Source: Discostella pseudostelligera (Eukaryota; Bacillariophyta; Thalassiosirophyceae; Thalassiosirales; Thalassiosiraceae). Taken from it: 40,446 nucleotides of DNA. Made by a program: the position numbers and the translations under genes. Location: positions 1-40,446 of the forward strand of contig JALLBK010000022.1 of NCBI GenBank assembly GCA_036940085.1. The letters run 5' to 3'. A model generated the notes under the pieces. The model was not told where the DNA came from and searched no databases. It saw only the letters and a program-made list of their open reading frames with translations. Positions 2,784-40,130 of the stretch are shown piece after piece. Position 1 is the stretch's first letter; each line of letters starts with the position of its first letter.

Positions 2784-3431
2784 CGTTTCATTTCCGGTGG
2801 GATGCTACCACAATAAACCTGGTCACAAGATGAATGAGCACGGTATTATGTATTATGATGCTGCGGCTATCACTCTCACTATCATGTTGTTCGTCGAGAG
2901 TCGGGAGAGGATACGTCGAGGTGACAGTGAAAAGGCGGTGAAGTCGACAGCAGAGCACTAACTGTTCGTTCCGACTTCCGACGACCACTTCTTGGAGATG
3001 ACGTGGAAAATACCGTCATCGACATCGTTCTTCGCATCGAGGGTTTGTGCTTGGTGCACCCAAGGATGGATGAATGCCAGTCTGACCCTCTCCAACCCCG
3101 ACCAATTACCCTACATCATGTAAGAACTCATCAACCCTCGTCTCCCGATCAATCAAGCTCTCCTGATGGTCGAAGAATGTTTCTACTGGAGTGATAGAAT
3201 GAATGCTTATTGTATCAACCTAAAGCAGTTCTTGAGTCATGTCCAATAATTAAGAAAGTCAATTATGAATTACACTACCAATACTATTTCCAAAGAAGCA
3301 TGGCAAAGTAGTAGCAAAGCAATACAAAGCCCGACCTTTCTCAATAACATGATTTCACCAGCAAATAGAACTCATTTCCTCTATCCGACGCAAATGTTGT
3401 CGATCTCTCAACCAACGACAATATATTATGC
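2784..3431. other. intergenic region between carrier promoter and Ubl-eL41 3' end
   Basis: About 650 bases without a supported gene. It holds the promoter side of the carrier gene and the 3' flank of the minus-strand Ubl-eL41 gene. Short open frames here have no recognisable protein features, and I see no RNA gene or repeat. Confidence 0.5.
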
Positions 3432-3734
3432 TTAACGGGCACGTTGACGCATCTTACGACGCTTGCGACGAAGGCGTCTCATACGCTTCTTGCGCCACTT
3501 GGCACGCATGCCTCCAGGAACCTCCAACATGAGGTCAAGTTCTTCATCCTCCTGGACGCCGTTTCCGAAGAGAGTTCCCTCAACAAGCTCAGCGTCACCG
3601 TTCACAAGACGAATGAGGTGGCCGGGGATGTACTCCTGGTTCTCAATCATGGCCTTGAGATCGGCGATGGTGGTGCTACCCTCGACGGCGTAGGCCATCG
3701 AGGTGCCCGTGGGCGCGTTCACGATAATCTGCAT
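3432..3734 (-). CDS. RPL41: ubiquitin-like domain fused to ribosomal protein eL41
   Basis: A single 100-codon exon. Residues 76-100 (starting MRAKWRKKRMRRL) are a complete 25-residue eL41, the very basic small protein of the large ribosomal subunit, with only conservative changes from the usual animal/yeast form. Residues 1-75 form a ubiquitin-like domain: it starts MQIIV, keeps the TI..LKAMI helix, IP, R42-L43 and a TL element, and ends in Gly74-Gly75 directly before the eL41 Met. It is one residue shorter than ubiquitin. Of ubiquitin's lysines only the Lys27 equivalent remains, and the tail is LEVPGG instead of LRLRGG. By analogy with ubiquitin-eL40, ubiquitin-eS31 and FUBI-eS30, cleavage after Gly-Gly would release eL41; that step is inferred. 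A CTCTCCCCAG tract just upstream (about 3771 on the minus strand) could end a 5'-UTR intron. Confidence 0.93.
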   Translation of the reverse strand: MQIIVNAPTGTSMAYAVEGSTTIADLKAMIENQEYIPGHLIRLVNGDAELVEGTLFGNGVQEDEELDLMLEVPGGMRAKWRKKRMRRLRRKRRKMRQRAR

Positions 3735-4436
3735 TATTTAGCTGCGGCAAGTTGGTTGCTCGAAACCTGGGGAGAGGAGAGTGTAGGGAACAAGAGGTGA
3801 GTGAGATGACACGACGGTGATGGGAGAAATAATTATCGAACCCAGACGCAGACCCGTCATCGTCATTTCGACATTAAATGAGGCCTTGCCCCCGACAAAG
3901 AACACAGCCTAGACTCCGCGGAGATTGAGACATACTAACAGCGCTCTCTCAGACTCAGTAGCCGTGGCTACAGCGGCCGACGGACGCCATGGTTCCTTAC
4001 CCTGGGTTGGGGAGCAGACAGCAACTTTGTGGGCAGATTTCGGAGGTTCCGACGGAACACGGAACAGCCTTACTCAAACCCTTGCACGTAGAATCGACGT
4101 AGGAATAGTACCCAAATGTGTGGCTAGAATGCGGACAGACCGAGGCATCGCAGAATTTGGTCTGTCTCTCGTAGGAAAAGGTAGCAAAGTGAGCGACATG
4201 AACATGTGTGGCTGAACCGCGGACAGACGAAAGGAGAATCTTTGGTCTGTCCGTCGTCCATCGACTGCTCGATTCCGACGCCGACGGACGACGGACCGGA
4301 CGCCCTCGCCCACAACATTCACAAAAGACATCTTGACCTCTCTAGAGACCAAGATACTACTTATGCTATTGCTAGCCTATCTTGACCATGATGCTCAGCG
4401 GATGTGCTACCAGATCCAACGCCAGTATCTGCCAAC
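3735..4436. promoter_or_regulatory. shared upstream region of Ubl-eL41 (-) and RluA-like gene (+)
   Basis: About 700 bases between two divergent genes. No supported coding sequence. It contains a candidate 5'-UTR intron for the eL41 gene, with an acceptor near 3771 and a weak GTATGT/GTTAGT donor near 3935-3941, the 13-base palindrome at 4046 and the tandem hairpins at 4132-4253. The promoter role is inferred from position. Confidence 0.5.
4132..4253. repeat. two tandem inverted repeats with GGACAGAC/GTCTGTCC arms
   Basis: The first hairpin pairs GACAGACC (4134-4141) with GGTCTGTC (4159-4166), loop 17. The second pairs CGGACAGAC (4220-4228) with GTCTGTCCG (4245-4253), loop 16. Each is preceded by a similar TGTGTGGCT sequence (about 4117 and 4205), so the whole unit appears duplicated at about 88-base spacing. 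It lies between the divergent Ubl-eL41 and RluA genes. A separate 13-base palindrome, GTTCCGACGGAAC, is at 4046-4058. These could be dimeric transcription-factor sites or 5'-UTR hairpins; which one is unknown. Confidence 0.75.
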
Positions 4437-5912
4437 ATGATCAAAGCATGCATCACTCGTAGTAGTACTTTCAACCTGCCTACCTCATTTTGTCGAATTA
4501 ACTGTGTCAAAGTCACACGTATCATCGATATGCAAAATCATCGTCGCTCTCATCGGCATCAACATCAACATCGCTTACCAGCTCACACCAAATTCCGTAG
4601 CAGACGCCAAATTCATCGTTGTCAGCCACCAGCTTGCATCTATCTAGTCGTCTCTATAATGCTTTATATTTCATATGTGACATCAGCGACATCGTGGCCG
4701 CTTGCATTTCTATCTTCTAGAACAAGTCGTCAGTCAGTACTACCTCCTGCCAGCATAACTTCACCTTGCACATCATGGTTTCATCGATTACATACTAGAG
4801 CAACAACCCCAAAATTCATCTCACAATTGAATGCAGACACTAGGGGAGGACGGAATCCAAGTAATGAAAGACAATCACAACAACCTCGAACTCGAATACA
4901 AAGAAGCGACAATAGAAGTCACTCTTCAACACCCAAAATTCAACTGGAAAAGCCGCAAGTTATTTTTTCTAACAATCATTTGCTCGTCGTGAACAAACCA
5001 CCCGGATGGAAATCTCAACCTGGTAATGGAGGAGGGACCAATGACAACAATAATTCACAAAACAAATCTGAATACAATAATGATCCGAAGTGTCTTTTAT
5101 CCTACCTCCAATCTCAATCATTGGGCGGTGGTTCCATGAAAGACTTTCTAATGCCCACACATCGTTTGGATCAACCATGTACAGGAGTGTTGATATTTGC
5201 CAAGAATGGAAAGGCCGCGAGTCGAGTTCAGGTTGCCTGGAGTAAGAGACAGGTGAAGAAGTGTTATTGGGTTGTGGTAGAGGGTGGAGGAATTGACAAA
5301 AATCGGGGTGGTGGGATGAACGGTTTGGAATTGCTGCAAAGCCGTTCGTCACATATCTTGGATCCTGAATCTGGAGGAAACACACATACCTATCGACTGT
5401 CAGCAATACTGAAAACTACGGGAGGTAAAGACAGAGATGAGAAGGGAGGTAGATTGAAGAATGCTGGCGGTTCAGTTGTTGTGAAACCTCTCCCGCCTGG
5501 TCAATCATCAACTTCTGCGGACGACGGCCGCGTGTGCCACATTGAATGGAAACATTTGCTTTCTTTGAAGACAGCACCATCTGCCTCGACCAGACATTTG
5601 CTCTCCGTGACCACTGATACCGGCGCGAAGCATCAGGTGCGTGCACTGCTTGCATTGGCAGGTGGCGCACCCATAGCTGGAGATTTACGATACGGGAACA
5701 ACAATCTGAATTCACAAAGTAAATATCAACCAGGGAGAGTCGACCGACCACTTCCTGATGGTTCGGTGGCGCTTCATGCACGATCTGTACACTTGCCAAC
5801 TGTATCTCTTGGAGGAATGGAATTTTTGAAGGATGAACCCTTCGTTGCAAGCATACCAAGGCAATGGAAAGACTTTTTCGGTATTCGCGAGGAAGACTTC
5901 AAAAAGTTTTAG
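4437..5912 (+). CDS. RluA-family RNA pseudouridine synthase
   Basis: Converts uridine to pseudouridine in rRNA or tRNA. About 491 residues, with the catalytic domain in the C-terminal two thirds. Motifs in order: VVNKPPGW (family VnKPaG), THRLDQPCTGVLIFAK with the catalytic Asp of HRLD, YWVVVEGG, and TGAKHQVRALLAL (family TGxxHQIRvhla). In HRLDQPCTG a Cys replaces the usual Thr/Ser. The first about 170 residues are low-complexity, basic and Ser/Gln/His-rich with one hydrophobic stretch (CIYLVVSIMLYISYV), consistent with an organelle-targeting leader, though the compartment cannot be assigned. Start at the first ATG of the open frame. One uninterrupted exon. It is divergent from the Ubl-eL41 gene. 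The substrate site is unknown. Confidence 0.88.
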   Translation: MIKACITRSSTFNLPTSFCRINCVKVTRIIDMQNHRRSHRHQHQHRLPAHTKFRSRRQIHRCQPPACIYLVVSIMLYISYVTSATSWPLAFLSSRTSRQSVLPPASITSPCTSWFHRLHTRATTPKFISQLNADTRGGRNPSNERQSQQPRTRIQRSDNRSHSSTPKIQLEKPQVIFSNNHLLVVNKPPGWKSQPGNGGGTNDNNNSQNKSEYNNDPKCLLSYLQSQSLGGGSMKDFLMPTHRLDQPCTGVLIFAKNGKAASRVQVAWSKRQVKKCYWVVVEGGGIDKNRGGGMNGLELLQSRSSHILDPESGGNTHTYRLSAILKTTGGKDRDEKGGRLKNAGGSVVVKPLPPGQSSTSADDGRVCHIEWKHLLSLKTAPSASTRHLLSVTTDTGAKHQVRALLALAGGAPIAGDLRYGNNNLNSQSKYQPGRVDRPLPDGSVALHARSVHLPTVSLGGMEFLKDEPFVASIPRQWKDFFGIREEDFKKF

Positions 5913-26299: not shown

Positions 26300-28402
26300 A
26301 TGGCTAGTGATCGATGGCGCAGTCTCAACGAGCCGACGAATAGGCCCTCCGTTCCGAATGATAAGATAAAAAGCCATGGCGTCAACCCGTCGTCATTTTA
26401 CACGAAGCTCCGACGCAAATTGGAGGGGCCGGTGACGGCCACTCAAAAACAACTCGATGAAATCCTTCACTTGGCTGCACGCAATGAGGTCGTTCAACGG
26501 AGACATGAGTTCACTTCAATCCAAAAATTGCAGCGCGAGGCCTACCATGAAGTTACCGCAATTAAGATTTTCCCTCTCCAGGATTTGGCCATCGAGTTTT
26601 TCAGTGACATGATGAAGGAATATTTTGGGCACGCCGTCAATGAGAGAACCACGGCATGTGATAATTTGGAACAGCACGAAGATTTTGATGGAAAGCACGG
26701 AGTAGATGATGAGCTAAGAGGTCAACCGCCGAGCGAGAGAGTTAAGAGAATAAAAGTTGAGCGGCGTTGGGGTGAGGACTTGGGTAGATTGAAGGAACAG
26801 TACAGGGCCATGTTCCTCGAAGAGATGCATCACATTCCATTAACCTTTCTTCCCGAACTATGGTCGATGGAACCCCGCATTTTTGCTCTGGAAACATCGT
26901 CAGGGAAAAGGAAGTATGTCGTTGGAAACCTGGGCAGATTCTTGCAACATTATTGGAGGGATACAAATCCTCGGAGTCGACATTTTTATGAGCTGATACC
27001 TGAGGGGACGCCTTGTCGACTATACTTCGACCTTGAATATTCCAAAGAGTGCAATCAAATTTCTACGCAAGAAAGTGAAATGTTGATGACAGAGTTTATT
27101 GACGAGCTGTGCCATGAATTTCGATTGGTCCATGATATTACAATGAACAGATCCTGCGTGGTTGATCTTGACTCATCGACGGAGAAGAAATTTAGTCGCC
27201 ACTTAATCATACACTTGCCCAATGGTGAACTCTTCGCCGATACCTATTCAGCAGGTCTTTTTGTGAAGAGATTTGTCGGAAGGTTGGTAGATGAGTTATC
27301 AGCAGGGATGCTTGCGACCAGACATGTAACCTTGGCGAAATGTTTATTCGTCAAGAACCAATCTACCGGGTCTGCCGAACAGAAGTCAGTGGAGTCAGAA
27401 AAGTCAGGAGAAACAGTGGATCGAGTTGCCGACAATCAGCAGGAGAGAGAACGAGGAAAGATGATTGAGAATTTATCGTCCTTTGTTGATCTCGGTGTTT
27501 ACACTCGGAATCGCCTCTTTCGATTAATGGGTTCGACGAAGTGGGGAAAATGTGCCTCTGCTGCCCTTCGAATTGCGGATGCAAACAAATTCTGCTTCCC
27601 TACCAGATTCAGTAATAGCAAGTTCTATTTGCCAGATAAATTGCCAATTGAACCATCGACAGATCTCGCATTCGCTGTTACGAACGACGCAGATGAGCGT
27701 CGAGAGAAAGTTCATGAGGAGTTCTGTGCTGCTCTGGACTGGGAAACCCATGCCCGCGCCTTGGCAATGACTTTGATTGTGCCTGCTAATAGAAGCAAGA
27801 CAACTGCTTCAATTTTAATGAACCAATCTGACGGTGATGGAACTCTGACTACAACAAGAAACTCTTCCGGTACACGCAGAGACAAATCGCTGATACGGAA
27901 CTGCAATGGTGCATCTCCTATCCCATCGCTTGATTTCTTCTTCTTGCAATTAAGCCAACGCGGCGGCATCCAAGGGAAAATCCGCGCATGGTCGCACGAA
28001 GGCCCTTACTTCTTCTACCAAATTTCGGAGAATAGATGGTGTGAAAATATTGGAAGGGCGCACAAAAGCAATAACATTATTTGGAATGTGGATCTGACAT
28101 GCAAAAGTTACTGGCAGACATGCCATGATCCTGATTGCCGAGCAGCTAATTTCCGTGGAGTGAAAACGCAATTGCCTGAAGAGATGGCAATCTTAATAGA
28201 TGACTATCTGCTCGAGCAAGAGCTTGGAGAGCTGGACGAAGAGAAGGTCGTCAACGAAGCTACCATTATGAATGGCGATGACCATCTACTCGAGCAAGAA
28301 CTTGGAGAGCTGGACGAAGAAAAGGTAATCAACGAGGCTACAACTATGTTATGCAGATCGAAGATCGACAATTGCTCAGTTAATAATGATGTGTCTACGT
28401 AG
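26300..28402 (+). CDS. PRIMPOL: PrimPol (DNA primase-polymerase, CCDC111-type)
   Basis: A single exon of 700 residues. An archaeo-eukaryotic primase that reprimes stalled replication forks and bypasses lesions in nucleus and mitochondria. Catalytic motif I is RLYFDLEY (D244, E246), motif II FSRHL (S299, H301) and motif III FVDLGVYTRNRLFRL (D397). The zinc knuckle is C581-x6-H588-x19-C608-x4-C613, the same spacing as in human PrimPol as I recall it. A basic/acidic low-complexity insert (about 360-390) separates motifs II and III. The C-terminus has two 26-residue copies (634-659 and 660-685) of an acidic unit starting DD-[YH]-LLEQELGELDEE, placed where human PrimPol has its acidic RPA-binding motif. 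The family is certain; RPA binding is inferred. Confidence 0.95.
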   Translation: MASDRWRSLNEPTNRPSVPNDKIKSHGVNPSSFYTKLRRKLEGPVTATQKQLDEILHLAARNEVVQRRHEFTSIQKLQREAYHEVTAIKIFPLQDLAIEFFSDMMKEYFGHAVNERTTACDNLEQHEDFDGKHGVDDELRGQPPSERVKRIKVERRWGEDLGRLKEQYRAMFLEEMHHIPLTFLPELWSMEPRIFALETSSGKRKYVVGNLGRFLQHYWRDTNPRSRHFYELIPEGTPCRLYFDLEYSKECNQISTQESEMLMTEFIDELCHEFRLVHDITMNRSCVVDLDSSTEKKFSRHLIIHLPNGELFADTYSAGLFVKRFVGRLVDELSAGMLATRHVTLAKCLFVKNQSTGSAEQKSVESEKSGETVDRVADNQQERERGKMIENLSSFVDLGVYTRNRLFRLMGSTKWGKCASAALRIADANKFCFPTRFSNSKFYLPDKLPIEPSTDLAFAVTNDADERREKVHEEFCAALDWETHARALAMTLIVPANRSKTTASILMNQSDGDGTLTTTRNSSGTRRDKSLIRNCNGASPIPSLDFFFLQLSQRGGIQGKIRAWSHEGPYFFYQISENRWCENIGRAHKSNNIIWNVDLTCKSYWQTCHDPDCRAANFRGVKTQLPEEMAILIDDYLLEQELGELDEEKVVNEATIMNGDDHLLEQELGELDEEKVINEATTMLCRSKIDNCSVNNDVST
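28199..28354 (+). repeat. 78-base tandem duplication in PrimPol C-terminus
   Basis: Two in-frame copies of a 78-base unit (28199-28276 and 28277-28354), about 80-90% identical by eye, encode the acidic 26-residue repeat. Differences include synonymous changes (GAGCTT/GAACTT, GAAGAG/GAAGAA), which argues that the protein sequence of both copies is kept. Confidence 0.85.
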
Positions 28403-38125: not shown

Positions 38126-40130
38126 GGCTCACAGCAACGTCCTCGGTGTTACCTCCTGAAACAGCAGGATCAGCACCTGCAGTGTCCGAGCCATCACCCA
38201 TTTCCGGGGGACTTTCCAACAGAATTTCAATTGCCCGGTTGACATTTCCATGACTCGAAGTTAATGCACGAATATTCGCCGAACGGTCCGTGAAGCCCAT
38301 ATCATGGAGACTATTTAGCTGTTGTCGAAAGCGCTGACCGGGGGCAGGTTGAGATGCATTTCCACCAACGGGATGTTGACCACCACCGGCCGCGGGAGGC
38401 ATGAATGGAAACATAAAGGGGTTAGCCATAGGTGCCGCACTGGATGCACCTCTGTTTGTACCGCTGCTGCTAGATCCAAGTAGGTTGGAAAAGTCTAATC
38501 CTCCCGCGGGAGGAGCTGCTGCTGCACCACCACCGGTGCCGCCAAGAGTTGGTATCCCTCCTATCCCTGACATACTTCCATTGAGTTGCTCCATGGCCTG
38601 CTGCATTTGAATCATGGCACGAACATTGGTTGGGTCCATCATTGCCCGTATCTTCGTTTTATGCAACAAAACAGCAAGGAACAATAAGTTAGAATGATGA
38701 TGAATGCACAAAAGAAAGAAACCACATCAACTACGCACCGCCTGAGGATTCTCAAAAATAGCTGCTGCCTGCGGATTCGTCTGACGTAGCTGCTGAATCA
38801 TTGGGTTCGACTCCATCATCATTCTCATCGCTTCGGGATTATTCAACATGTTTTGCATCATATTTTGCATCATTGGATTTTCCATCATCTGGAGTGTAGC
38901 CTCGAGGTTGGGTCCGTTAGGACCCATGGCCGGATTTGCCCATGGATTACTTGCAGCAGCAGCACTTCCTCCTCCTCCCGCTCCGGGTGGCATTCCAAAG
39001 CTCCCCATACCCCCCATGTTCCCCATGAGTGACGCAAATGGATTCGCCCCTCCCGCACCACCTTGGCTGGTGGGTGCTCCCGACGTGGCCGACGGTGCCG
39101 GTGCCCCCCAAGGATTCGGCATGGCTCGATTGGTCGCTCCCTGTCCACTATTCGCACCACTTGCACTGTTACTTCCACCGCTACTATCACCACCACCTCG
39201 GCTTCCACTACTTCCACTCATCATGGCATCCATCATCGGCTCCTGAACATCCTCATACATCCTCCGTAATGCACTATATCCCCCGGGCATATTCTCAATT
39301 TGACTCATGGCCAAATCCTGATTCCGCATCATATTTTGCATCGCCGACGGGTCACGCATCATCTCCATCGAACGACGCATGAATTCCGGATCCTCAAGGG
39401 CATGTCGAAGCTCGGGATTGGAGTCCATAATTTGACGCATTTGGGGATTGCTTTCCATCATGCTACGTAAAAAGTCAGGCGAGTTCATTAGAGATTGTAC
39501 CATGGGATTATTCATCATTTCGGACATCATTTGTGGATTTTGTTGGAGCTGTTGTTGAAAGCTGGCCAAGTCGGGCATGCCACCGCCACCGCCACCTCCT
39601 GCTCCCATCATGGAATTCATCATGTTTGCATAGGGATTATTATTGGTAGAAGAATTGGCATTACCAAAGTTGAGAAAGGGGTTGCTGTTCAAGTTGGCGT
39701 TTGGATTGGGCTGGCTAGATGGGACAGTCGATGTGTTGCTGGTGGCGGCAGCAGTTGCGTTTGCACTACTGCCAGAATTGGCATGGACCCCGCTCGTCGC
39801 TCCTCCCCCCTTGACCAAATACAACACAATGCCATCATTGCCGGCGACATGACCACCCTCAATACCATAAAAGGCCAAAGTTCGAGTATCCTCACTAAGA
39901 ATCCGTCCCTTGTAAATCAATCGTTGTCTTTCCACGGCGCAATGGCCGCTCTCGTCCCGTTGAGCGATGAGCTCCTTGATCTGTCGAACGGTGCTGCTGG
40001 GTGTGATGATGGTGCCGCAATCGCCGCCGCCGATTTCGAAGCGGGCCGACGAGGAGAGTCGAATGATGAGTTTGAGGAAGCTGCTGCTGCTGCTGCTGCT
40101 GCCATTTTCAGAGGGGGCGACTCCAGTCAT
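38055..40130 (-). CDS. DSK2: ubiquilin / DSK2-type ubiquitin shuttle factor, two exons
   Basis: Exons 40130-38739 and 38651-38055 encode about 662 residues; the join reads NPQA-IRAMMDPTNV. Ubiquilins carry ubiquitinated clients to the proteasome. Domains: an N-terminal ubiquitin-like domain (about 18-95; LKLIIRLSSSARFEI, VRQIKELIAQ, RLIYKGRIL); STI1-type Met/Asn-Pro-rich repeats (about 190-300: MSEMMNNPMVQSLMNSPD, NPQMRQIMDSNPELRHAL, and a second set at about 430-485); and a C-terminal UBA domain (about 569-612: LNSLHDMGFTDRSANIRAL with the MGF loop). Gly/Ala/Asn-rich linkers are long. A Ser run near the N-terminus comes from a CTG/CAG-type repeat. Upstream is a cluster of five TTCCCGCC-type motifs. 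Confidence 0.94.
40079..40102. repeat. CTG trinucleotide run in ubiquilin exon 1
   Basis: An uninterrupted GCTGCTG run of about eight units, read on the minus strand as a poly-serine stretch near the ubiquilin N-terminus. A simple microsatellite, likely length-variable. Confidence 0.85.

What the first reader, a model, noticed from the sequence alone, without database searches (positions are those of the whole stretch)
3432..3734. A ubiquitin-like domain fused to ribosomal protein eL41
eL41 is normally made as a bare 25-residue peptide. Here a complete eL41 follows a 75-residue ubiquitin-like domain ending in Gly-Gly, in one exon without an intron at the junction. Known ubiquitin-type ribosomal fusions are eL40, eS31 and eS30 (FUBI); I do not know of an eL41 one. 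The Ubl keeps the fold pattern but has lost all ubiquitin lysines except the Lys27 equivalent, and its tail is LEVPGG rather than LRLRGG. It therefore looks like a dedicated, non-conjugating chaperone-type leader analogous to FUBI.
Basis: partly seen in the sequence, partly recalled or inferred. Interest (0 to 1): 0.92.

Follow-up and report, generated by a model that had tools for sequence, protein, structure and literature searches.

The report
Diatom ubiquitin-like leader on eL41
In diatoms the tiny ribosomal protein eL41 is encoded behind its own private ubiquitin-like domain, probably cut off at a conserved glycine; this resembles the animal FUBI-eS30 arrangement but with a different partner and a separately derived domain.

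Summary
The finding is real. On the minus strand, 3734..3432, one 100-codon ORF encodes a 75-residue ubiquitin-like domain (Ubl) joined at Gly-Gly|Met to a complete 25-residue eL41. Of 163 proteins from two searches (window's own included), 162 carry the eL41 start pattern; the eleven organisms named are all diatoms, from Leptocylindrus and Proboscia to araphid pennates and Thalassiosirales. The Ubl is 37% identical to the genome's ubiquitin, is predicted to have the ubiquitin fold, and varies far more than eL41. Its last Gly and the eL41 Met do not vary; the ubiquitin Arg72 position, which the ubiquitin E1 needs, is acidic in 100 of 108. Best reading: a dedicated, cleaved, non-conjugated leader on apparently the only eL41 gene of an incomplete assembly. 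Cleavage, protease and any chaperone or checkpoint role are inferred. A 2021 review mentions Ub-eL41 fusions in a phrase, under a filter that would exclude this Ubl; five literature searches showed no paper on this family. Distribution outside diatoms is untested. New variant of a known kind.

The parts
3510..3734 (-). Ubiquitin-like domain, 75 codons, beta-grasp fold, ends LEVPGG
3435..3509 (-). Complete eL41 (25 codons, MRAKWRKKRMRRLRRKRRKMRQRAR)
   Evidence: Pfam Ribosomal_L41 33.4 bits, cut-off 22.3; only match in the held genome; predicted helix 75-99
3507..3515 (-). Predicted cleavage junction Gly74-Gly75|Met76
   Evidence: G75 and M76 in 108 of 108, residue 74 G in 94 and A in 14, against 11 residue types just before it in 162 proteins; cleavage itself inferred
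3432..3434 (-). Stop codon TAA
3738..3740 (-). In-frame stop TAA upstream of the start codon
   Evidence: read from sequence
3754..3769 (-). Conserved 5' untranslated motif CAGGTTTCGAGCAACC, right after a pyrimidine tract and CAG (3' splice site-like), ending 19 nt before the ATG
   Evidence: one exact match in the genome; 14-base core fits 15 of 19 relatives' upstream extensions with at most 2 mismatches

Best explanation
The gene makes a precursor in which a private ubiquitin-like domain rides on the N-terminus of eL41. A deubiquitinase-type protease cuts after the last Gly (shown: the junction is conserved; inferred: the cut), releasing mature eL41 that begins with Met-Arg and a free Ubl that does not enter the ubiquitin cascade because its Arg72 equivalent is acidic (shown: the substitution; inferred: the consequence). 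While attached, the folded, acidic Ubl would keep the short, mostly basic peptide soluble and would block its docking, since the N-terminal end of eL41 faces the h27/h44/h45 cavity near the P site (known from an archaeal structure). So the Ubl works as a removable leader and cap, like FUBI on eS30.
For: 162 of 163 proteins (P0002-P0164) match an eL41 start pattern; the 163rd, P0164, has eL41 with one changed residue; P0002 and P0052 are the window's own. PF05162 in 108 of 108 and PF00240 in 100 of 108 of the aligned set at E 0.01 or better. Final Gly in 162 of 162; GG 146, AG 16. Mean column entropy 1.25 bits in the Ubl against 0.12 in eL41, yet G75 and M76 invariant. Ub R72 position E/D in 100 of 108; variants selected by the ubiquitin E1 all kept Arg72 (PMC3731359 passages). 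Hydrophobics that deubiquitinases contact are kept: L71 position L in 98, L73 position V or I in 105, I44 position V, L, A or M in 102 of 108. Ub Leu15 is Tyr in 106 and Phe in 2 of 108; FUBI has Phe there, a change tied to its altered docking on USP36 (PMC10611586 section 9). Single eL41 locus in the held assembly. Canonical Ub-eL40 is also present, so the cell does not depend on this Ubl for ubiquitin.
Against: No cleavage, mature eL41 or free Ubl was observed. AG junctions (16 of 162) might be cut poorly by a strict diglycine protease; in human cells altered diglycine (AA, GV) makes FUBI-eS30 non-cleavable (PMC8354635 passages). USP36 contacts Arg72 and Arg74 of ubiquitin with glutamates and this Ubl lacks both, so an adapted protease would be needed. 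The held assembly is incomplete (eS31 not found), so a second eL41 is not excluded. The geometry argument rests on passages about archaeal eL41, not on a model made here.
Confidence: 0.68

Rival explanations
1. The freed Ubl is a new conjugated modifier of diatoms, with its own E1/E2, and eL41 is just the convenient tail whose removal exposes its Gly.
For: Ubiquitin fold and invariant C-terminal Gly; invariant K27, E31, N32 and P37 could form a specific surface.
Against: Arg72 position acidic in 100 of 108, against the ubiquitin E1's preference, and acids are not among the residues named for NEDD8 E1 selection in the passages seen. Sixteen of 162 end AG. No second copy of this Ubl turned up in the genome: of 7 other matches, 6 lie in ubiquitin or ubiquitin-like ORFs and one (C75, E 1.64) was not examined.
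Confidence: 0.1
2. The Ubl serves only expression: it gives a 25-codon gene a longer ORF and a defined N-terminus, and any cleavable folded leader would do.
For: The Ubl diverges fast and is shortened to 70 residues in 19 of 162.
Against: K27, E31, N32, P37, L43 and G53 are invariant and Y15 nearly so in 108 sequences, more than a mere spacer needs.
Confidence: 0.13
3. The fusion is not cut and the Ubl stays on the ribosome as a permanent extension, as reported for Giardia Ub-eS31 and its altered junction.
For: Longer eL41 chains exist in some ribosomes; AG junctions occur; the Giardia case is described in PMC8122580.
Against: The junction is under strong constraint, and the N-terminal part of archaeal eL41 lies buried in an rRNA cavity, leaving little room for a 75-residue domain.
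Confidence: 0.07
4. Artefact: chance adjacency, assembly chimera or contamination.
For: None found.
Against: Present in rows from genome, transcriptome and metagenome sources; a small tree groups the Thalassiosirales (support 0.993) and the two pennates (0.926).
Confidence: 0.01

Closest known systems
FUBI-eS30 (FAU) of holozoans
   Same: Diverged Ubl, poor in ubiquitin's lysines, with terminal Gly-Gly ahead of a small basic ribosomal protein; aromatic residue at the Ub Leu15 position; as a rule no Arg at the Ub Arg74 position (5 of 162 have it).
   Different: Partner is eL41, not eS30; the family profile scores the genome's own ubiquitin 53 bits and FUBI 21; eS30 in this genome reads as an ORF with its own Met and no Ubl, though an upstream exon is not excluded.
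Ub-eL40 and Ub-eS31 precursors
   Same: N-terminal Ub fold, Gly-Gly junction, ribosomal tail.
   Different: Those carry canonical ubiquitin; here 28 of 75 residues match the genome's ubiquitin.
Ub-eL41 cases listed by Martin-Villanueva et al. 2021 (PMC8122580)
   Same: Ubiquitin-type domain with eL41.
   Different: Their set was limited to domains at least 80% identical to yeast Ub (section 4 read); this Ubl is about 37% identical to the genome's ubiquitin. Their Table S2 could not be opened here, so the organisms are unknown to me.
Ub-NiSOD fusion of algae
   Same: Ubiquitin directly ahead of a non-ubiquitin protein; one such ORF seems to be in this genome (L006).
   Different: Canonical Ub, enzyme partner (PMC6332867 passages).

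Membership tests
eL41 (PF05162) | Pfam profile above curated cut-off over nearly the whole 25 residues | tested here: met
   33.4 bits against 22.3, positions 1-23 of 25; matched by 108 of 108 relatives at E 0.01
eL41 (PF05162) | Present in ribosomes at the subunit interface | not testable with these tools
   no proteomics or diatom ribosome structure at hand
Ubiquitin fold (beta-grasp Ubl) | Predicted structure superposes on ubiquitin | tested here: met
Canonical ubiquitin | Near-identity to ubiquitin and LRLRGG tail with Arg72 | tested here: not met
   28 of 75 identical; tail LEVPGG; acidic at the R72 position in 100 of 108
FUBI (FAU) family | Closer to FUBI than to ubiquitin | tested here: not met
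FUBI (FAU) family | Fused to eS30 | tested here: not met
   partner is eL41
Cleavable Ub/Ubl-ribosomal protein precursor | N-terminal Ubl ending in Gly-Gly directly followed by the ribosomal protein | tested here: met
   GG in the window; GG 146, AG 16 of 162
Cleavable Ub/Ubl-ribosomal protein precursor | Proteolytic release in vivo | not testable with these tools
   needs proteomics

The most novel reading that the evidence does not exclude
The Ubl is an assembly checkpoint: carried into or onto the small subunit by eL41, it covers the decoding-site cavity that the N-terminus of eL41 faces, and its removal by a dedicated protease licenses subunits for translation. Diatoms would thus have independently turned a ribosomal protein leader into a quality-control step, parallel to FUBI-eS30, with a gene-specific 5' untranslated motif controlling its output.
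Probability: 0.2. Interest if true: 0.85.

Novelty: new variant of a known kind. Interest (0 to 1): 0.64.

Why it matters
Why ubiquitin folds sit in front of ribosomal proteins is an old open question. A second dedicated, non-ubiquitin leader, on another partner and seemingly derived from ubiquitin on its own, gives an independent evolutionary replicate: what both share (terminal Gly, aromatic at the Leu15 position, loss of the basic tail) points to what such leaders need. It also shows that eL41 of diatoms is overlooked or misnamed by annotation (several JGI rows call the fusion S27Ae).

Tried and rejected
First genome search used the wrong strand (plus-strand translation) and was repeated on the minus strand.

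Chimeric query (genome's own ubiquitin joined to the window's eL41) to look for canonical Ub-eL41 elsewhere: 7977 candidates scored, 120 listed, all with ubiquitin-family domains and, as I read the list, none with PF05162; many are 150-177 aa, as tandem ubiquitins would be. Uninformative, so presence outside diatoms remains untested. The limit of 120 listed rows also hid the lower part (681 hits; 913 hits).

Second eL41 gene: the degenerate DNA pattern gave 512 matches with up to 3 mismatches against 291 for its control, only this locus with none. I translated the two with 1 mismatch (L012, L013) and two of those with 2 (L014, L017); none continues as eL41. The other 2- and 3-mismatch places were not translated, and a split gene would escape.

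Spliced-leader idea for the 5' motif: with up to 2 mismatches 9 matches against 15 for the control, one exact, so rejected. Rfam found nothing in 3300-4500; the 35-nt leader folds only slightly better than shuffles (z -1.70, 11 of 200 as good).

Viral carriers: 44 pattern matches in viral contigs, none confirmed. NCBIfam: no match. FUBI descent: rejected on scores. dN/dS: no DNA of relatives was fetched. FUBI was not among the rows shown by the fold searches, which proves nothing about it. In the small tree the ubiquitin root falls beside Chaetoceros (0.828), so the deep order of diatoms is not recovered.

Full report
What is there. The minus strand of the window, 3734..3432, carries one uninterrupted ORF of 100 codons. 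Residues 1-75 are a ubiquitin-like domain ending LEVPGG and residues 76-100 a full eL41. Pfam scores eL41 well above its cut-off and ubiquitin a little below its own; PDB ubiquitins align over the whole Ubl. An in-frame stop that begins six bases before the ATG rules out a contiguous N-terminal extension.

Where it occurs. The best database match is 99% identical and named Discostella pseudostelligera, a thalassiosiralean diatom. The held genome has 23.0 Mb in 963 contigs; a D. pseudostelligera assembly is listed at 30 Mb in 3358 sequences (PMC12159174, passages), so ours is incomplete or another strain. Two protein searches listed 120 rows each, of 681 and 913 hits. Of the 163 distinct proteins P0002-P0164, 162 match an eL41 start pattern and the other, P0164, has eL41 with one change; P0002 and P0052 are the window's own, and a few rows have broken tails or starts (P0043, P0054, P0112, P0146). 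Eleven organisms are named in those rows, all diatoms: Discostella pseudostelligera, Stephanodiscus triporus, Cyclostephanos tholiformis, Cyclotella cf. meneghiniana, Mediolabrus comicus, Thalassiosira oceanica, Chaetoceros neogracile, Cyclophora tenuis, Fragilaria crotonensis, Leptocylindrus danicus and Proboscia inermis (lineages of four of them). No raphid pennate and no non-diatom was named, and neither is thereby excluded. A small tree of 12 fusions groups the Thalassiosirales (0.993) and the two pennates (0.926), as vertical descent would give; its root, beside Chaetoceros, is not informative. That Leptocylindrus and Proboscia branch early among diatoms is recalled; if right, the fusion was in the ancestor of living diatoms or nearly so.

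Is it the only eL41? The eL41 profile matches this locus alone in the genome, and the four near matches to a degenerate pattern that I translated are not eL41. Caution: eS31 was not found, so the assembly lacks or splits some ribosomal genes. Ub-eL40 with canonical ubiquitin is present. eS30 reads as an ORF with its own Met and no Ubl, an upstream exon not being excluded. Of seven other matches to the fusion in the genome, six lie in ubiquitin or ubiquitin-like ORFs; the weakest (C75, E 1.64) was not examined.

What is conserved. In 108 aligned sequences the Ubl has a mean entropy of 1.25 bits and eL41 0.12. The invariant Ubl residues are M1, Q2, K27, E31, N32, P37, L43, G53 and G75; the eL41 Met is invariant too. 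Residue 74 is G in 94 and A in 14, while the place before it takes 11 residue types in 162 proteins, Arg in 5 and Lys in none. Mapped onto ubiquitin: Arg72 is E or D in 100 of 108; Leu71 and Leu73 positions stay hydrophobic apart from one Gly; Leu15 is Tyr in 106 and Phe in 2; there is no Lys at positions 6, 29 or 63, none among the seven commonest residues at 11 and 48, Lys in 41 at 33, and Lys27 in 108.

What that suggests. Ubiquitin variants selected by the ubiquitin E1 all kept Arg72, while the NEDD8 E1 took aliphatic and sometimes polar or aromatic residues there (PMC3731359, passages); an acid at this place should block activation. Human USP36 holds ubiquitin and FUBI by hydrophobic patches, and FUBI's larger core residue at the Leu15 position is part of what changes its docking (PMC10611586, section 9). 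The diatom Ubl has the same kind of change. So the surface for a USP-type protease is plausibly kept and the E1 surface lost; against this, USP36 also contacts Arg72 and Arg74, which the Ubl lacks. In human cells uncut FUBI-eS30 disturbs late 40S maturation (PMC8354635, abstract and passages). [quoted passage not shown] A 75-residue domain on that end should clash with the mature site. Hence the proposed mechanism: soluble carrier and cap, removed before or as eL41 docks. Steps shown: fusion, conservation, predicted fold, substitutions. Steps inferred: cutting, its protease, non-conjugation, capping.

What is in print. Five searches listed no paper that, by title, abstract start or term search, treats this family; the library holds only openly licensed PubMed Central papers. 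A 2021 review says that a few fusions of Ub with eS8, eS19, uL1 or eL41 were found in Pfam, after keeping only domains at least 80% identical to yeast Ub (PMC8122580, section 4 and passages); a 2024 review repeats the list (PMC11354881, one passage). A study of ubiquitin fusions in algae has no occurrence of L41 in its main text (PMC6332867, term search). Supplementary tables were not open to me. UniRef names some members '60S ribosomal protein L41' and JGI names some 'S27Ae'.

A side finding. CAGGTTTCGAGCAACC ends 19 nt before the ATG, after a pyrimidine tract. Nineteen relatives have a database ORF running at least 10 codons upstream of the Ubl Met; back-translated in any frame, 15 of the 19 fit the 14-base core with at most 2 mismatches, and 13 of the 19 (12 of those 15) beat 95% of shuffles. 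Back-translation picks favourable codons, so this flatters the fit. In the genome the exact motif is unique. A conserved, gene-specific 5' leader element is likely; its role is unknown.

Verdict. Real, conserved, best read as a dedicated cleavable Ubl leader of eL41 in diatoms: a new variant of the Ubl-ribosomal-protein precursor kind.

Noticed in passing
window 3754-3769, minus: Gene-specific conserved 5' untranslated motif CAGGTTTCGAGCAACC, seen in relatives in several reading frames; single exact copy in the genome.
   Followed up: partly
L006:883-1608 minus (G000:C697): Ubiquitin repeats followed directly by HCQVPCGIF..., which looks like a Ub-NiSOD fusion (NiSOD motif recalled).
   Followed up: partly
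L009:1003-2019 minus (G000:C128): Ubiquitin-like domain behind a hydrophobic leader in a 338 aa ORF; perhaps the plastid-associated ubiquitin of diatoms (recalled).
   Followed up: no
P0042 and P0072: Two Ubl-eL41 clusters whose eL41 ends RSK instead of RAR; gene conversion, contamination or chimeras.
   Followed up: no
P0048, P0062, P0069, P0075, P0095, P0096, P0103, P0105, P0114, P0115, P0117, P0118 and four more: Ala-Gly instead of Gly-Gly at the junction, 16 of 162.
   Followed up: partly
window 26300-28402, plus: 700 aa ORF with Herpes_UL52 primase domain (PF03121), perhaps a cellular PrimPol relative.
   Followed up: no
window 38727-40130, minus: Ubiquilin-like gene in the same window.
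   Followed up: no
G000: No eS31 (PF01599) match in the assembly: missing or split gene.
   Followed up: no
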